Below, in pieces: positions 3,087-10,681 of a stretch of DNA of 10,681 nucleotides (position 1 is its first letter; every line of letters starts with the position of its first letter). A program made the position numbers and the translations under genes. The stretch comes from an uncultured Candidatus Poseidoniales archaeon (GTDB lineage: Archaea; Thermoplasmatota; Poseidoniia; Poseidoniales; Thalassarchaeaceae): contig CATMIM010000012.1 in the NCBI GenBank assembly GCA_950068635.1, positions 1 through 10,681 on the forward strand. The letters are read 5' to 3'. The notes under the pieces were generated by a model, which made no database searches, was not told the origin of the DNA, and worked only from the letters and a program-made list of their open reading frames with translations.

Positions 3087-5957
3087 TCAGGAATCGAAGA
3101 AGTCTCCCTCGTACCGCTCGATGACGTCGTCGCACTCAGCGCGGATGCGTTCGAGGCGGATGCCCTGATGCGTTCCCAGCAGGCGCAGCATCAAGGCGTG
3201 CTCGTAACTCTTCGCTATCTCCTCCAGTTCTTCTCGAGTCCCCGCCTGCTCCATCTTATCCTGGAATCCTTTCGCCCGGGTGGTGCGAGTGAGCAGACCG
3301 AAACCCAGCCAGATGGCGAGAGGGACGCCACCGATGATGCCGACGATGTCCCATACTCCCAGTTCGATGCCGAACACCGTGATGCCTTCGATCGGGTGGC
3401 TGTCGGCATCCAGCGGGTTGGTGCCGGCTTCCAGTTCAACGCTGTCCGTGAATCCATCACCATCATCATCCGTGTCCACCAGATCGGCGATGGTATCGCC
3501 ATCGGTGTCGTAACCCCACAACGGATTGTCGGGGAAGGCATCCTCAGAGTCGATCAAGCCGTCGTTGTCGCGATCATCGTCCAGCTCATCTGGGATGCCG
3601 TCACCATCAGCATCCGCCCAATATCTGGCATCATCGGGGAAATGGTCGGCACTGTTGCCCATCTTGTTGTCTCCGTGACCATCACCATCAGCATCCGCGC
3701 ACTGAGTGATATCCAAGGGGAACATGTCACCGGAGTTCCCGGTCTTGTTGTCACCACAGAGGTCACCATCGACATCCGACCATTGGGTGGAATCATCAGG
3801 GAAGGTATCGCCTTGGAATCCGTTGGGGTTGTCGCCGAACTGGTCACCGTCACGGTCTGTCTGCTGGTCTGGATTGAAGGGAAAGACATCTCTGTTGTCT
3901 CCAACTCCATCGTTGTCGGTGTCGCGGAATTCCGAGGGGTCGGCGGGGAAGTCGTCACCCGAGTCGCTGTAACCATCGCCATCCTGGTCAGGACAACCGT
4001 TCACATCGAGGTAACTCGTGCCATAATCAATCTGACAGAAGTCAGGGTTGAAACCAAACGGGTTGTCTCCGAAGTTGTCCCCGTCCTCGTCGCGCCACTG
4101 CGTTCCATCGACGGGGAATGGATCACTTTCGTCAGCCATTTTGTCTCCATCACTGTCGACACACCCGAACACCCCTGCCAACTGAGATGTGCCACTCTGC
4201 TCAGGGCAGGCATCCGGGGTGTTCCCGTCTGGATTGTCACCGTAGCCATCGAAATCAGCATCAGACCATTGAGACGGGTCTGCCGGGAAGATGTCCGCCT
4301 CGTCCGACCAACCATCTCTATCCCGGTCAGGGCAACCATACCTGTCTTCGGTCGAGGTCCCGGATTCATCGACACACGCATCCGGGGTGGTCGCCCCTTC
4401 GGTCGAATTGTCACCGTAGCCATCCCCGTCCGCATCGGACCATTGTGTCGGATCATCAGGGAATGAATCAGCTGCAGGACCATACCCATCAAGATCCTCG
4501 TCGTGCACGAGGTGAGTCACAGAGAAATCAGACATCCCGAGGCTGGAGTATTCGTGACCTTGGAAATTGAAATCATCCTCGAAGATGCCGAGGAAACCGC
4601 CTCCCGCGAAACCATGACAGTGGGTTTCCGAGAACTGGGTCGGGAGGATGTTGACATATTCTCCGTATCGGTTGATGATCACCACGATATCTCCGACCGC
4701 ATCACCATCTGGAACCTCTAACGGGGTCACGAGAATGGGGGTTCGGTTCTCCCGGGGAAACAAGGTCGTGTCCGCGAAGGAGCCGCTGAACAGCGCGTGA
4801 CCCGTATCCAACCAGCATGCCCCGCGCATGACGTCATCCTCTCCTGAACCGATGGAGAGATACCAGGACGTGCTGAACGTCTGTGGCGAGAGGGACAGCA
4901 GGAAACCATCGACACCACCTACCGGTTCGATGGCCGTGTCGTCGATCGTGATGCCGGAGTGCTCACCTGAGATCAACAGGCTGTGCGGGGTGGTGATGAT
5001 GTTGAAATGCTGCCCGATCGAGCCTGACAGATTGTGCATCGGGTGGAAAACCAGGTTGTCGTCTATCGCCCCTATTGCTGCCGACGGAGCCAATCCGCCT
5101 GAACCGGATGTGGGCGGAGTCGATACATACACCATGTTCGCGGTCTCGGCAGGGCCGGATGGGGCCATCGCAGCGGCCTGAACAACGAAACCTTCCGCTG
5201 CCGCCACCAGCCATTCATGCTGATCGATATGATAGATGGCATAGAAGCCATGCCACCCGGAGTTACCCTGCTGATTCAGGACCGTGTGTCCAGTGACCTC
5301 CAGCTTCCCCACGAAAACTCCGCTGACCAGGACGATATCCTGACGCAGCGGGATGACACTTCGAATTTGGAAATTCCCCGGGTCGGTGTTGTGGTAAATC
5401 CAGGTGGTGTCGTCAGAACCGTCGCTGAGATTTCGAATCGTGAGCGCCCAACTGTCCTCGTTCATTCCCTGCTGGCCGGGCCTGCTGTTCTCAGTAGCAT
5501 TGCAGAAAACGGTTTCATCTCCATAACAGTGAGTACCGATGACGAGGTGGTCGTTGCGCAGAACACCTCGGATGTGGCTGTCAGACGACCAATCGAGCCA
5601 GTCGATCGAGACTGCGGGTTCATCGCTGGTCCAATCAGCATCCAGATACATCAGATAGCCGCTCAGGCCATCGGTTTGGGAATAATTCGAGCCGAGGAAC
5701 AGACCCGGGTTGTACACCCCTTCGACCAGCATCGATTGCGGGGAGTGTGCTACGAGTCGAACGGTGTCATCCGCCGCCAATCCGCCTGCCGTGAACAGAT
5801 TCTGGTAAGCGACCTGGGTGTAATTCTGAGGACCGCCCGTCAGGTCGAAACCAAAATTCGCTTGCTGACCCTCATCCTCTTGACCTACAGATGAATCAGC
5901 GGCTGCTGGAAGAACGAACAACAGCAAGACTAGCGCACATGCGATGCGGCGGAGCAT
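3087..5957 (-). CDS. Large cell-surface protein with TSP type 3 calcium-binding repeats
   Basis: The 956-residue protein is predicted to be exported and membrane-anchored. Residues 1-20 (MLRRIACALVLLLFVLPAAA) are a signal peptide. Residues about 22-484 form a beta-rich head with several N-glycosylation sequons and blade-like repeats such as GFLLSLSP...WYLSIGSGEDD, resembling beta-propeller repeats (inference). Residues 486-853 hold about 13 TSP3-type units built on DxDGDGxGDN and DxFPxDPxQW, which bind calcium in known families. A single membrane helix spans 868-889, followed by a charged, helical cytoplasmic tail of 67 residues with DKMEQAGTREELEEIAKSYE. Start is ATG 5957; a weak TATA-like CAATACAT about 25 bases upstream would make it leaderless. 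Large TSP3 proteins are typical of marine Group II archaea. Adhesion, capture of polymer substrates or sensing are possible roles; none can be proven here. Confidence 0.88.
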   Translation of the reverse strand: MLRRIACALVLLLFVLPAAADSSVGQEDEGQQANFGFDLTGGPQNYTQVAYQNLFTAGGLAADDTVRLVAHSPQSMLVEGVYNPGLFLGSNYSQTDGLSGYLMYLDADWTSDEPAVSIDWLDWSSDSHIRGVLRNDHLVIGTHCYGDETVFCNATENSRPGQQGMNEDSWALTIRNLSDGSDDTTWIYHNTDPGNFQIRSVIPLRQDIVLVSGVFVGKLEVTGHTVLNQQGNSGWHGFYAIYHIDQHEWLVAAAEGFVVQAAAMAPSGPAETANMVYVSTPPTSGSGGLAPSAAIGAIDDNLVFHPMHNLSGSIGQHFNIITTPHSLLISGEHSGITIDDTAIEPVGGVDGFLLSLSPQTFSTSWYLSIGSGEDDVMRGACWLDTGHALFSGSFADTTLFPRENRTPILVTPLEVPDGDAVGDIVVIINRYGEYVNILPTQFSETHCHGFAGGGFLGIFEDDFNFQGHEYSSLGMSDFSVTHLVHDEDLDGYGPAADSFPDDPTQWSDADGDGYGDNSTEGATTPDACVDESGTSTEDRYGCPDRDRDGWSDEADIFPADPSQWSDADFDGYGDNPDGNTPDACPEQSGTSQLAGVFGCVDSDGDKMADESDPFPVDGTQWRDEDGDNFGDNPFGFNPDFCQIDYGTSYLDVNGCPDQDGDGYSDSGDDFPADPSEFRDTDNDGVGDNRDVFPFNPDQQTDRDGDQFGDNPNGFQGDTFPDDSTQWSDVDGDLCGDNKTGNSGDMFPLDITQCADADGDGHGDNKMGNSADHFPDDARYWADADGDGIPDELDDDRDNDGLIDSEDAFPDNPLWGYDTDGDTIADLVDTDDDGDGFTDSVELEAGTNPLDADSHPIEGITVFGIELGVWDIVGIIGGVPLAIWLGFGLLTRTTRAKGFQDKMEQAGTREELEEIAKSYEHALMLRLLGTHQGIRLERIRAECDDVIERYEGDFFDS
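3399..4502 (-). repeat. TSP3 calcium-binding repeat array (protein level)
   Basis: The region encodes residues 486-853 of the surface protein. About 13 acidic units follow one another, each with aspartates spaced as D-x-D-x-D-G, most followed by GDN or an FPxDPxQW linker. The DNA also looks repetitive (recurring gtcaccatc and tcatcagggaa words), as expected from coding repeats. Within it, residues 507-677 (bases 3927-4439) form three longer units of 58, 57 and 56 residues, each with one cysteine pair. Confidence 0.85.
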
Positions 5958-8061: not shown

Positions 8062-9393
8062 ATGTCCGGAACGGTGACTCAGAAGCAGATAGCCGAGCTG
8101 CGCAGCCAGTTCGGCGACGATGCGACGGCGAAGATCCTGCAGAACGCAGTGACGACCACGACCATCCAGGAGGTGGCGCTCAACCGCGATGTCGTCGCCA
8201 GCACCGACTTCTCCTTCTCTACCAAACTGGACGACTGGAAGGCGACCTCGCAGAAGGCGTCCGGCCGCTGCTGGCTGTTCGCCTTCCTCAACCTGTTCCG
8301 CAAGGGCGCAATCGAGAAGATGAACGTCAAGGACTTCGAGTTCAGTCAAGCCCACATCCACTTCTGGGACAAGTTCGAGCGTGCCAACGCCAACCTAGAG
8401 GCGATCATCGCCACGGCTGACCGCCCAATCGACGACAGAACACTGGGTGTTCTCCTCGACCACCCATCCGAGGACGGCGGCCAGTGGAACATGGCGGTGA
8501 ACCTCATGCTCAAGCACGGGGTGGTGCCCAAATCCGTCTATCCCGAGTCGCAGTCCTCATCCTCGACCTACCGGATGAATGCGAACCTGCGTCATCTCGT
8601 GCGCGCCATCGCTGCGGAGATCAGGGGAATCATGGAGTCCGGAGGAAGCGAGGGCCAAGCGCGTGAGCACAAGCAGAGGCGCATGGCGGATGTGTGGCGG
8701 CTGTTGAACATCCATCTGGGAACACCCCCGAGACACTTCGACTGGCAGTGGCGGGACAAGGATGACGCGTTCCATCGCCGCGGCCGGATGACGCCGAAGG
8801 AGTTCATGGCGGAGTTCGTGACGCTTCCATTCCAGGAATACGTCTGTCTGGTGCACGACCCGCGCAACCCCACGCTGCAGACCTACACCGTCGACCTGCT
8901 GCAGAACGTCCACGGGGGCTTGCCGGTCATCTACCTCAATGTCGACATCGACTCCATGAAGGACATCACCCGCCGCATTCTCGAGGATGACGAGCCCGTC
9001 TGGTTCGGTTGTGACACCGGCAAGCAGATGCACCGCAGACTCGGCCTCTGGGATGCCGACCTCTACGAGTTCGAGCAGCTCTACGGATTCAAACTCGGCC
9101 TCGACAAGGAAGCGCGTCTGCGCTACCATCAGACGGCGATGACGCACGCCATGCTGTTCACCGGGGTCGATGTGACGGACAAGGGAATCCGGCGCTGGCG
9201 GGTGGAGAACTCGTGGGGCGAGAAGGAGAGCGGGAAATCCGGGTTCTACACCATGAACGACTCCTGGTTCGACGAGTACATGTTCGAGATCGCCTCGCCG
9301 AGGTCGTATCTCTCCGACGAGATGGTGGCCGCGCTCGACACCGAGCCGGTCGTGCTGCCCGCCTGGGACCCGATGGGCTCGCTGGCGCGGTGA
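8062..9393 (+). CDS. pepC: Bleomycin hydrolase / aminopeptidase C (peptidase family C1B)
   Basis: C1B peptidases are hexameric, papain-fold cysteine aminopeptidases with the active sites inside a barrel. The catalytic segment QKASGRCWLFAFLNLFR places the oxyanion glutamine at Q64 and the nucleophile at C70. MTHAMLFTGVDV gives H362 and WRVENSWGE gives N383, so the whole Cys-His-Asn set is present in order. At 443 residues it has the normal full length. The C-terminus, VVLPAWDPMGSLAR, matches the conserved C-terminal arm of yeast Gal6 and human bleomycin hydrolase, which lies in the active-site cleft and makes the enzyme an aminopeptidase. There is no signal peptide, so it is cytoplasmic. It fits the last steps of peptide use. 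C1B enzymes are mainly known from bacteria and eukaryotes, so acquisition by transfer is possible. Confidence 0.95.
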   Translation: MSGTVTQKQIAELRSQFGDDATAKILQNAVTTTTIQEVALNRDVVASTDFSFSTKLDDWKATSQKASGRCWLFAFLNLFRKGAIEKMNVKDFEFSQAHIHFWDKFERANANLEAIIATADRPIDDRTLGVLLDHPSEDGGQWNMAVNLMLKHGVVPKSVYPESQSSSSTYRMNANLRHLVRAIAAEIRGIMESGGSEGQAREHKQRRMADVWRLLNIHLGTPPRHFDWQWRDKDDAFHRRGRMTPKEFMAEFVTLPFQEYVCLVHDPRNPTLQTYTVDLLQNVHGGLPVIYLNVDIDSMKDITRRILEDDEPVWFGCDTGKQMHRRLGLWDADLYEFEQLYGFKLGLDKEARLRYHQTAMTHAMLFTGVDVTDKGIRRWRVENSWGEKESGKSGFYTMNDSWFDEYMFEIASPRSYLSDEMVAALDTEPVVLPAWDPMGSLAR

Positions 9394-9427: not shown

Positions 9428-10111
9428 ATGGGTGACGTGGTCGACGACGAGCCGGGGTTCGTCTCCTTGGTCTTCCACGAGTTGCCTGAGGCACAGATGC
9501 TGACGCGGGCCGAAGCCTTCCACGCCCGGATGGAGCTGCGCCGGACCACCCGGCACTTCTCCGACAGGGATGTGCCGCGGGAACTGATCGAGCTGGCCGT
9601 CCAGACGGCGGGAACGGCACCCTCGGGCGCGCACATGCAGCCATGGACGTATGTGGCGGTGTCCAACCCTGGACTGAAGCAGCGGCTGCGCGAAGCGGCT
9701 GAAGTGGAAGAGAAGCGATTCTACGAGGAGCGGATGCCCGCAGCGTGGGAGGAGGTTCTCACTCCTCTGGGAACTGATTACGTCAAGGAGCACATCACCG
9801 ACGCACCATGGGTCGTCGTCCTGTTCAGACACTCCAAGCGGCTGCGCGACAACGGGGAATGGGGGCCGACCTACTACTCACAGGAGTCCTGTGGCATCTC
9901 CGCCGGCCTGTTCATCGCCGCCGTGCACGACATGGGCCTGGTGACTCTCACCCACACACCCTCCCCGATGAAGTTCCTCTCCGAGGTGCTCGACCGACCG
10001 GAGCATGAGACGGCGATGCTGCTGATGCCGGTCGGCTATCCTGCCGACGATGCCATGGTGCCGGACATCCAGCGCAAGGCGCTCGAGGACATCCTGGTGT
10101 TCAAGGATTGA
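9428..10111 (+). CDS. Nitroreductase-fold flavoprotein, iodotyrosine deiodinase-like
   Basis: The 227-residue protein belongs to the FMN-dependent nitroreductase superfamily and matches the iodotyrosine deiodinase (IYD) branch. RRTTRHFSDRDVP (38-50) holds the FMN-phosphate-binding arginines. TAGTAPSGAHMQPW (60-73) is nearly identical to the human TAGTAPSGAHTEPW, and GLVTLTHTP (170-178) carries the threonine expected near FMN N5. VGYPADDAMVPD completes the C-terminal motif. The three IYD lid residues that hold the zwitterion of halotyrosine are present at exact spacing: E95, Y99 and K120 (E157, Y161 and K182 in human). The N-terminal ELPEAQMLTRAEAFHARM also follows IYD, which supports ATG 9428. 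It has no membrane anchor, unlike the animal enzyme. GAGGG (9406-9410) is far from the start (17 bases). It likely reduces a halotyrosine or related phenol. Its end overlaps the next convergent gene by 11 bases. Confidence 0.88.
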   Translation: MGDVVDDEPGFVSLVFHELPEAQMLTRAEAFHARMELRRTTRHFSDRDVPRELIELAVQTAGTAPSGAHMQPWTYVAVSNPGLKQRLREAAEVEEKRFYEERMPAAWEEVLTPLGTDYVKEHITDAPWVVVLFRHSKRLRDNGEWGPTYYSQESCGISAGLFIAAVHDMGLVTLTHTPSPMKFLSEVLDRPEHETAMLLMPVGYPADDAMVPDIQRKALEDILVFKD

Positions 10112-10568
10112 GGGACCAGTGCTCGCACAGCCGTTCGACGAGGCGACGGGCGCCGATGCCCCACTGGACGATGGAGACGCTGGCGCGGCTGCGGTCGTCA
10201 GCCAACTCTCCTGAGGCGAGGCCCGGTTGGTTCAGGTCAGAGGGAACGAGCGGCAGCGGTTCTCCTGTGGACTTGATGGTCAGCGTGAGGGTGTCGTCGA
10301 CGCAGGTGGCGGTCAGATGATCGCCCAGTTCCATACCAGCATCTTCGATCTTGATGTTGTCATCACCGAGCTGTGACCTGAGCGTGCGGGCGAGGGCATC
10401 CAGCATCTCTGAGGAGGTGCTCACCTCCTCCTCATCAGCGGAATCATCCTCCGGTCCGTAGGCGTCGAGGAAGGGGAGGTCGGTGTCATGCTGCTCCAGC
10501 AGTTCCCCGAGTCCGCGGCCCAAGCCCTTCTTCTTCTGGCTGGTGCCTTCCTCGTCGTCTCCGCTCAC
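10101..10568 (-). CDS. Small ParA-partner candidate with ParB-type N-terminal GLGRGL motif
   Basis: The 155-residue protein is not a member of any family I recognise as a whole. Residues 12-26 (KKKGLGRGLGELLEQ) match the N-terminal tail with which chromosomal ParB proteins contact and stimulate ParA ATPase; R18 would be the stimulatory basic residue. An acidic linker follows (about 27-52, with DSADEEE). The C-terminal part (about 53-150) has a short helix SEMLDALARTLRSQL, strands such as HLTATCVDDTLTLTIKS, and a final helix ARRLVERLCEHW. No ParB CTPase box, helix-turn-helix or nuclease motif is visible. The GTG start overlaps the stop of the upstream ParA-like gene (GTGA), with GAGGTG five bases upstream. 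The translational coupling supports a two-gene ParA/adaptor unit; the cargo is unknown. Confidence 0.7.
   Translation of the reverse strand: MSGDDEEGTSQKKKGLGRGLGELLEQHDTDLPFLDAYGPEDDSADEEEVSTSSEMLDALARTLRSQLGDDNIKIEDAGMELGDHLTATCVDDTLTLTIKSTGEPLPLVPSDLNQPGLASGELADDRSRASVSIVQWGIGARRLVERLCEHWSLNP
10491..10535 (-). other. ParB-tail-like motif KKKGLGRGLGELLEQ (residues 12-26)
   Basis: These codons give a basic patch followed by GLGRGLxxLL, the consensus of the ParB/Spo0J N-terminus (for example GLGRGLxALL). In ParB this peptide inserts at the ParA dimer interface and triggers ATP hydrolysis. Confidence 0.65.
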
Positions 10569-10681
10569 TCGTCCACCTCGTGGGCCAACCCCCAGCGCTT
10601 TGCGAGCGAGATCGCCAGTTCCAGATAGTCCCGACCCCCAGCGCTGTCCGGAGCGTGCACGTGGATGGGGACTCCATGGCT
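10565..10681 (-). CDS. Probable ParA-type ATPase, C-terminal 38 residues only
   Basis: An open minus-strand frame runs from the window edge to a TGA at 10565-10567. It encodes HGVPIHVHAPDSAGGRDYLE, then LAISLAKRWGLAHEVDE. The pattern (x)GxPI, strand, P-x-S-x-G, then YLELA is that of the C-terminus of ParA/Soj-type deviant Walker ATPases, where a switch to cargo positioning or chromosome partition depends on ATP-driven binding to DNA. The Walker motifs would lie outside the window, so the call rests on a short segment and on the neighbour, whose N-terminus looks like a ParA-stimulating peptide. The last bases overlap the GTG start of that neighbour by four bases. Confidence 0.6.
   Translation of the reverse strand, partial: SHGVPIHVHAPDSAGGRDYLELAISLAKRWGLAHEVDE
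10574..10579 (-). promoter_or_regulatory. Shine-Dalgarno site inside the end of the ParA-like gene
   Basis: GAGGTG on the minus strand lies 5 bases before the GTG start at 10568. It decides that start and points to translational coupling with the ParA-like gene. Confidence 0.55.

What the first reader, a model, noticed from the sequence alone, without database searches (positions are those of the whole stretch)
10101..10681. Archaeal ParA plus a ParB-tail protein without a recognisable ParB domain
The small protein carries KKKGLGRGLGELLEQ, the ParA-activating signature of ParB, but the rest shows none of the ParB CTPase, helix-turn-helix or spacer motifs. It is translationally coupled (GTGA overlap, GAGGTG site) to a gene ending like ParA. 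Known systems with a ParA-like ATPase and a partner bearing only a ParB-like tail (PpfA/TlpT, and functionally McdA/McdB) position protein cargo rather than DNA. I infer an archaeal cargo-positioning or non-canonical partition system whose cargo-binding part is the roughly 100-residue C-terminal domain.
Basis: partly seen in the sequence, partly recalled or inferred. Interest (0 to 1): 0.78.

Follow-up and report, generated by a model that had tools for sequence, protein, structure and literature searches.

The report
Archaeal ParA with swappable tailed partner
Marine archaea carry a ParA motor-type ATPase next to a small protein that has only the ParA-gripping tail of a partition protein, and in sister lineages the same tail sits on a membrane transporter instead, which suggests that the tail is a handle for whatever the cell wants positioned.

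Summary
The window (whole contig G000:C12, Poseidoniales/Marine Group II) ends in a translationally coupled pair: the 3' end of a ParA gene and a 155-aa protein with the tail KKKGLGRGLGELL and no Pfam or NCBIfam match. Full-length ParA1 orthologues in the same genus have the deviant Walker A box. The partner's C-terminal domain is modelled confidently as alpha+beta, with no ParB among its (weak) structural matches. The tail follows ParA1: 43 of 45 parsed soluble partners beside ParA1 keep L-[GAS]-R-G-L, whereas 0 of 14 orthologues in genomes without ParA1 do. In seven sister genera the gene after ParA1 is instead a 10-TM EamA/DMT transporter (75 loci), 40 of which carry an L-G-R-[GNS]-L tail on a predicted cytosolic N-terminus; on the ParA1 tree this swap needs one change. 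Other Thermoplasmatota attach a similar tail to helical bodies. So the tail looks like a portable ParA handle while the body varies. Most likely this is ParA-driven positioning or tethering of protein, partly membrane, cargo rather than DNA partition. Function and cargo are untested, and 34 of 75 transporters have no tail, which counts against an essential role there.

The parts
10565..10681 (-). 3' end of parA1 (38 codons plus TGA at 10565-10567); the rest lies beyond the contig end
   Evidence: matches the C-terminus of full ParA1 in G001/G002 and other genera
10574..10579 (-). GAGGTG ribosome-binding-site-like sequence inside the parA1 3' end
   Evidence: read from sequence
10101..10568 (-). 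gene of the tailed partner protein (155 aa, GTG start overlapping the parA1 stop)
   Evidence: 172 protein clusters at E<=0.001 (itself included), 32 of 59 genomes (own included)
10497..10526 (-). ParB-like ParA-binding tail GLGRGLGELL (residues 15-24)
   Evidence: spacing as L11-x-R13-x-L15-xx-L18-I19 of M. xanthus ParB (PMC12462528, passages)
10455..10487 (-). conserved second stretch DTDLPFLDAYG (residues 28-38), kept also where ParA1 is lost
   Evidence: L31, F33, L34, G38 invariant in 98 rows
10104..10421 (-). C-terminal alpha+beta domain (residues 50-155), unknown ligand
   Evidence: (90 residues of the model at pLDDT 90 or more)

Best explanation
The window holds the end of a ParA cargo system. 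ParA1-ATP dimers bind nucleoid DNA. The N-terminal tail of the partner (amphipathic L16-x-R18-x-L20-xx-L23-L24) docks at the ParA1 dimer edge and triggers ATP hydrolysis, so the partner and whatever its body holds follow or are spaced by the ParA1 distribution. In the window's genus the body is a soluble alpha+beta domain that I infer binds another protein; in a sister clade the body is a 10-TM EamA/DMT transporter, so the thing held is itself a membrane protein. A membrane protein with an N-terminal SAP domain (a DNA-binding type of domain, inferred to be cytosolic) is encoded just upstream and shares a short acidic-hydrophobic motif with the N-terminus of many ParA1; I infer that it belongs to the same system and that the system ties or positions envelope components relative to the nucleoid. 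Shown by computation: gene linkage, tail conservation, tail on other bodies, ParA catalytic and DNA-binding positions, predicted membrane topology, shared motif. Inferred: tail docking, ATPase stimulation, cargo identity, positioning.
For: ParA1 is a Soj/ParA-type ATPase (genus g4 copy: AAA_31 E 8.7e-54; best PDB chains 8ray and 1wcv). In 123 ParA1 rows D58 and N64 of M. xanthus ParA are kept, position 60 is D in 122 (one undetermined), position 238 is R or K, and four of the six tested tail-pocket positions are hydrophobic nearly throughout. Tail kept in 43 of 45 parsed soluble partners beside ParA1 but in 0 of 14 where ParA1 is absent. Transporter with tail directly after ParA1 in 40 of 75 loci; tail codons vary while residues stay; by a simple hydropathy script 65 of 66 transporters have 10 segments, and K+R in inner loops (618 versus 173) put the N-terminus in the cytosol. 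Transporter (20) and soluble partner (32) never occur together in 59 genomes. One change of partner type on the ParA1 tree. Similar tail on helical bodies after ParA in 8 of 14 loci of other Thermoplasmatota. SAP protein upstream in 14 of 14 loci that reach far enough, and shared motif.
Against: The tail is absent in 34 of 75 transporter loci (g8 11 of 11, g10 6 of 6, g9 7 of 8, g3 10 of 14) and altered (LGMGL) in one more, although ParA1 stays; no other long ORF with an N-terminal GLGRGL was found in four such genomes. In ParA1-less genomes the soluble partner survives with R18, L23 and the C-terminal domain intact and L20 in all but one, so the protein has a job that does not need ParA1. Pocket residue L187 of M. 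xanthus ParA is polar or acidic in all 123 rows and V116 in 122 (one undetermined); L152 is Q in the window's genus. The shared motif is missing by the pattern in 43 of 122 ParA1 rows, among them all of g2, g7, g16 and g21. The body's weak structural neighbours include a DNA-binding domain. No localisation or biochemical data were found or made.
Confidence: 0.55

Rival explanations
1. Non-canonical DNA partition: the C-terminal domain binds a centromere-like DNA site and ParA1 segregates chromosome or plasmid copies.
Confidence: 0.2
2. The small protein is an ATPase-activating or localising regulator of ParA1 (MinE-like), and ParA1 rather than the partner is the output.
For: Small size, coupling, tail; ParA1 kept where the transporter has no tail.
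Against: A conserved globular domain, kept even without ParA1 in 14 loci, is not needed for a pure activator.
Confidence: 0.13
3. For the transporter form only (not exclusive with the others): the tail there is a relic. The soluble gene's 5' end was fused to a newly inserted transporter gene and is now decaying.
For: At least 5 changes of tail state within the transporter clade; 34 of 75 loci without it.
Against: Where present it looks constrained: in genus g6 the first G, L and G of G-L-G-R-G-L are identical in the 18 rows aligned while 3 to 6 codons are used (the filter itself demanded R and a near-LG context; the 19th row, LGMGL, was left out); g5 8 of 8 and g11 9 of 9 carry the tail.
Confidence: 0.3
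4. The C-terminal domain is a chaperone-like peptide-binding domain of the type III secretion chaperone/YbjN shape that holds a client peptide, perhaps the acidic motif shared by ParA1 and the SAP membrane protein.
For: Foldseek's six best PDB rows are SycT (E 0.038 to 0.14); invariant R142 and R146; a YbjN-family protein has this shape without sequence similarity to the chaperones (PMC5398634, search listing with start of abstract).
Against: Matches are weak; the acidic motif persists in genera that lack this domain.
Confidence: 0.15

Closest known systems
Chromosomal ParA/ParB of Myxococcus xanthus (ParABS)
   Same: ParA fold and catalytic residues; partner tail L-x-R-x-L-xx-L-hydrophobic that matches L11, R13, L15, L18, I19 (PMC12462528, passages, section 14)
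   Different: partner has no detectable ParB domain; no bacterial parS above control; pocket positions V116 and L187 are polar or acidic
ParA/MinD-type cargo positioning with adaptor tails (McdA/McdB, ParC/CheW, PpfA/TlpT)
   Same: ParA-type ATPase, partner with a charged disordered N-terminus and a body devoted to cargo (general statement in PMC10241942, passages)
   Different: archaeal; similar tail shared by soluble, transporter and helical bodies; cargo unknown; PpfA/TlpT details are recalled, not tested
EamA/DMT transporters
   Same: 10 predicted segments, PF00892 E 1.9e-24 in the one scanned
   Different: in 40 of 75 loci an extra cytosolic N-terminus with a ParB-like tail; in the 20 relatives that have it the gene lies next to ParA1
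SegAB of Sulfolobales
   Same: archaeal ParA-type protein with a small partner (PMC12284271, search listing with start of abstract)
   Different: SegB is a DNA-binding ribbon-helix-helix protein (recalled); the window's partner is not modelled as one; the ParA2 operon here resembles that layout more

Membership tests
ParABS partition system | ParA ATPase with deviant Walker A | tested here: met
   INQKGGVAKTTT in L004/L005 of the same genus; AAA_31 in a g4 copy. In the window itself only the 3' end is present.
ParABS partition system | ParB partner with N-terminal ParA-binding motif | tested here: met
   KKKGLGRGLGELL
ParABS partition system | ParB CTPase/N domain (PF02195) and DNA-binding domain in the partner | tested here: not met
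   0 Pfam families at E<=1 in the window protein, 0 NCBIfam at E<=0.1; no ParB family among the 20 Pfam families matched by any of 98 members at E<=10 (one member has a weak Antitox_RHH match, E 0.018)
ParABS partition system | separate canonical ParB elsewhere in the genome | tested here: inconclusive
   PF02195 at E<=0.001 in 14 of 59 genomes, over cut-off in 5, none in genus g1; genomes incomplete, G000 60%
ParABS partition system | parS sites | tested here: not met
   TGTTNCACGTGNAACA with up to 2 mismatches not above reversed control in 10 genomes; only the bacterial consensus was tested
ParA cargo-positioning systems (McdAB, PpfA/TlpT type) | partner with ParA-binding tail plus a non-ParB body | tested here: met
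ParA cargo-positioning systems (McdAB, PpfA/TlpT type) | tail stimulates ATPase; cargo is localised | not testable with these tools
   needs biochemistry and imaging
Type III secretion chaperone/YbjN-like fold | domain with a significant structural match | tested here: inconclusive
MotA double-wing DNA-binding domain | significant structural match and basic DNA-binding face | tested here: inconclusive

The most novel reading that the evidence does not exclude
A ParB-type ParA-binding tail has been moved in evolution from a soluble adaptor to an integral-membrane transporter, and ParA1 together with a SAP-domain membrane protein that carries the same kind of short motif as ParA1 forms a nucleoid-to-envelope coupling machine in Marine Group II archaea, in which ParA1 positions or clusters membrane cargo on the nucleoid. 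The same tail-plus-variable-body design, including a body fused straight onto ParA, runs through Thermoplasmatota.
Probability: 0.3. Interest if true: 0.82.

Novelty: new variant of a known kind. Interest (0 to 1): 0.66.

Why it matters
Cargo-carrying ParA systems are best known from bacteria; for archaea a passage in PMC10241942 says that little is known of such roles, and it cites MinD in an archaeon. Here one archaeal order supplies a natural experiment: the same ParA gene with three partner states (soluble body with tail, membrane transporter with tail, transporter without tail). That makes the question 'is the tail alone what turns a protein into ParA cargo' directly testable, and it raises the unusual possibility that a nucleoid-bound ATPase manages an integral membrane transporter. 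It also points to candidate chromosome-segregation genes (ParA2 operon) in an abundant group of planktonic archaea.

Tried and rejected
Rejected: that the upstream gene is not a ParA. Rejected: chance motif. Not supported: ParB-like C-terminal domain; no ParB fold appears among the 50 rows shown of each, which is not proof of absence. Not supported: bacterial parS. Considered: the acidic motif [VIL][VILF][DE][AV][DE][FVIY] is bound by the C-terminal domain; weakened because the motif stays in genera without that domain. Considered: tail-less genera use another GLGRGL protein; none found in G009, G019, G011, G021 with the exact pattern, variants untested. Considered: ParA1 loses its tail pocket in tail-less genera; no clear loss seen, only L192 to F in g10. 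The ParA of other Thermoplasmatota is not shown to be a ParA1 orthologue: ParA1 is its own clade (support 100), deeper joins are weak. Literature: 'glgrgl' appears in one unrelated paper, and no paper held both 'lgrgl' and 'parb'; no paper held all of ParA, transporter, fusion, archaea, ParB, N-terminal tail. Searches on ParA with cargo, archaea and membrane protein gave listings, of which I opened two papers (PMC12462528, PMC10241942) for passages; that is the extent of the search for earlier reports. A second structure prediction (alignment A3, the ParA1-less form) was never accepted.

Rows dropped: one search lists 137 ParA1 places in 135 genomes; 125 of them went into. There 2 (L141, L160) were not parsed, and in 3 more (L012, L099, L157) the script took a wrong ORF, so they are left out of the 45. 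Two transporter rows (L137, L140) were marked '?' by the script and assigned by eye. One search used 82 of the 123 ParA1 rows (at most 6 per genus and state) plus 2 distant ParA2 as outgroup, so its root is not firm; it counted the 3 wrong-ORF rows and L136 (one undetermined residue) as soluble without tail, which inflates its overall tail count of 11 changes. In one search, 66 of 75 transporter loci were of fitting length and 65 had 10 predicted segments. In one search the row filter demanded R.

Full report
What is there. The window is a complete contig (G000:C12, 10681 bases) of a genome that is 60% complete. Where sources name homologues of the small protein, they name Thalassarchaeaceae, Poseidonia, Poseidoniales or Euryarchaeota. 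At its right end, on the minus strand, the last 38 codons of a gene run into a 155-aa ORF through a GTGA overlap, with GAGGTG 5 nt before the GTG. The small protein has no Pfam family at E<=1 and no NCBIfam family at E<=0.1.

The upstream gene is ParA. 34 of the 38 residues match a ParA1 of another genus (62%). In the two other genomes of the genus the complete gene stands upstream with INQKGGVAKTTT. ParA1 is Soj-like (g4 copy). On an alignment of 123 ParA1 rows to the M. xanthus chain, D58 and N64 are kept in all, position 60 is D in 122 (one undetermined), and the DNA-binding position 238 is R or K (position meanings from PMC12462528, passages). Of the six pocket residues replaced in that paper, L150, L155 and L192 are hydrophobic here, L152 is hydrophobic except for Q in the window's genus, L187 is E or Q throughout, and V116 is polar or acidic in 122 (one undetermined). 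So the pocket is related but not identical.

The tail tracks ParA1. The soluble partner occurs in 32 of 59 genomes, own included. ParA1 orthologues (E<1e-100) occur in 35 of 59: 32 of 36 in the window's family f1 and 3 of 23 in family f2; the window genome itself has only the fragment. In a wider set 135 of 292 genomes have ParA1 at E<=1e-80. I read the gene after ParA1 in 123 loci (25 already held and 98 of 100 newly fetched, out of 137 places). Soluble partners: 45 parsed, of which 38 read LGRGL, 4 LARGL (one with an undetermined first residue), 1 LSRGL and 2 GGRGL; 3 more loci were misread by the script. In 14 ParA1-less f2 loci the soluble protein is retained but the leucine before R18 is lost (RGLDHL, RDLDHL, RDLEHL, once RDFDHL). 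R18 is invariant in all 98 rows of a wider alignment, so the N-terminal module has a second, ParA1-independent constraint that I cannot explain.

The body is swapped. In genera g3, g5, g6, g8-g11 the gene after ParA1 is an EamA/DMT transporter (75 loci; PF00892 E 1.9e-24 in the one scanned). Tail L-G-R-[GNS]-L: g5 8 of 8, g11 9 of 9, g6 18 of 19, g3 4 of 14, g9 1 of 8, g8 0 of 11, g10 0 of 6, in all 40 of 75. In g6 the first three residues G-L-G are identical in the 18 rows aligned, with 3 to 6 synonymous codons each; the filter demanded R, and the row with LGMGL was thereby left out. By a simple hydropathy script 65 of 66 transporters of fitting length have 10 segments, and basic residues favour a cytosolic N-terminus (618 versus 173). 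The transporter occurs in 20 of 59 genomes, in all 20 next to ParA1, and never together with the soluble protein. On a ParA1 tree of 82 rows the partner type changes once (transporter clade SH-aLRT 96); rooted on the distant ParA2, the soluble form lies on the earlier branches; within the transporter clade the tail state changes at least 5 times. The plain reading is that the tail was carried over to a membrane protein, is kept in some genera and has been lost in others.

The same design elsewhere. All 14 ParA places outside the order were fetched. That ParA is not shown to be an orthologue of ParA1. In 8 of the 14 it is followed by an overlapping gene that starts with ALG[KR]G[LMI][KR][DE]L and continues as a charged, helical-looking protein of 189 to 447 residues. 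Of four scanned, three have weak TPR matches below the curated cut-off at the C-terminus. None of the 25 proteins found with one of them (itself included) carries a precomputed Pfam domain; two are named TPR proteins by a source. In three loci of families f8 and f18 a long body is fused to ParA itself; one stretch of it resembles the tailed body (24% over 94 residues, E 4e-5 for the single comparison). The other 3 of the 14 show neither.

The neighbourhood. In all 14 loci with enough upstream sequence (L041-L052, L058, L060) ParA1 is preceded by a protein of about 700-980 residues as called; the one scanned with Pfam has an N-terminal SAP domain (E 6.5e-11), and four of the five examined for it have one hydrophobic segment after an acidic linker, the fifth none above the threshold. 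The same protein lies upstream of the soluble gene in a genome without ParA1 (L188). The linker carries a motif such as VFEAEV in 9 of 10 linkers tested, and the ParA1 N-terminal extension carries the like in 79 of 122 rows, though in none of g2, g7, g16 and g21. With the stricter form of the pattern the motif occurs, among 217 ORFs of 20 loci, only in 12 SAP proteins and 2 ParA1. I infer a shared binding partner.

ParA2. A second ParA sits in an operon with a MoxR-like ATPase (named from recall), an 80-90-aa ribbon-helix-helix-like gene (VAPB_antitox E 0.012) and an 86-aa gene with a weak PIN match (E 0.022). It is the better candidate for chromosome partition, which would free ParA1 for cargo. 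ParB_N is present at E<=0.001 in 14 of 59 genomes, over cut-off in 5, and not in g1. In a sample of 292 genomes of the phylum the soluble partner was found in 49, all of them Poseidoniales (families f1 and f2).

Verdict. I rate it a new variant of ParA cargo systems. What is new is the portability of the tail, most of all onto an integral membrane transporter.

Noticed in passing
L053:3610-4569 (G000:C23), L054:7602-9197, L055, L057, L059: Second ParA (ParA2) in an operon with a MoxR-like ATPase, a small ribbon-helix-helix-like gene and a weakly PIN-like gene, in both families; a candidate chromosome segregation locus of Marine Group II.
   Followed up: partly
L052:10064-12196 and equivalents in L041-L051, L058, L060: SAP-domain membrane protein upstream of ParA1 whose acidic linker shares a short motif (VFEAEV-like) with the N-terminus of many ParA1; binding partner unknown.
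   Followed up: partly
L196-L200, L202-L204: Other Thermoplasmatota: ParA followed by ALGKGMKDLL-tailed helical proteins, some with a weak TPR match; most unnamed or 'hypothetical'.
   Followed up: partly
L201, L205, L206: ParA fused to a long proline/glutamate-rich and helical-looking C-terminal body (open frames of 633-939 aa).
   Followed up: no
L017-L019, L021-L023, L025-L032 (f2, no ParA1): The N-terminal stretch R[GD]LDHLMEQN.TEL.FLSAYGG is very conserved although ParA1 is gone; its function there is unexplained.
   Followed up: no
L118 and L119 (G130); L080 and L081 (G156): Two ParA1 loci in one genome; in G130 one of them groups with another genus, so transfer or contamination is possible.
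   Followed up: no
L051:15714-16757: XerA-like recombinase (just under the NCBIfam cut-off) close to the ParA1 cluster, with a RimK-like ligase between them.
   Followed up: no
window 3087-5957 (-): 956-aa protein with a bacterial TSP3 repeat match (PF18884 E 9.4e-8) and many DxDxDG-like repeats by eye.
   Followed up: no
window 8062-9393 (+): C1-like peptidase (PF03051, E 2.3e-155) followed by a nitroreductase that converges on the small gene.
   Followed up: no
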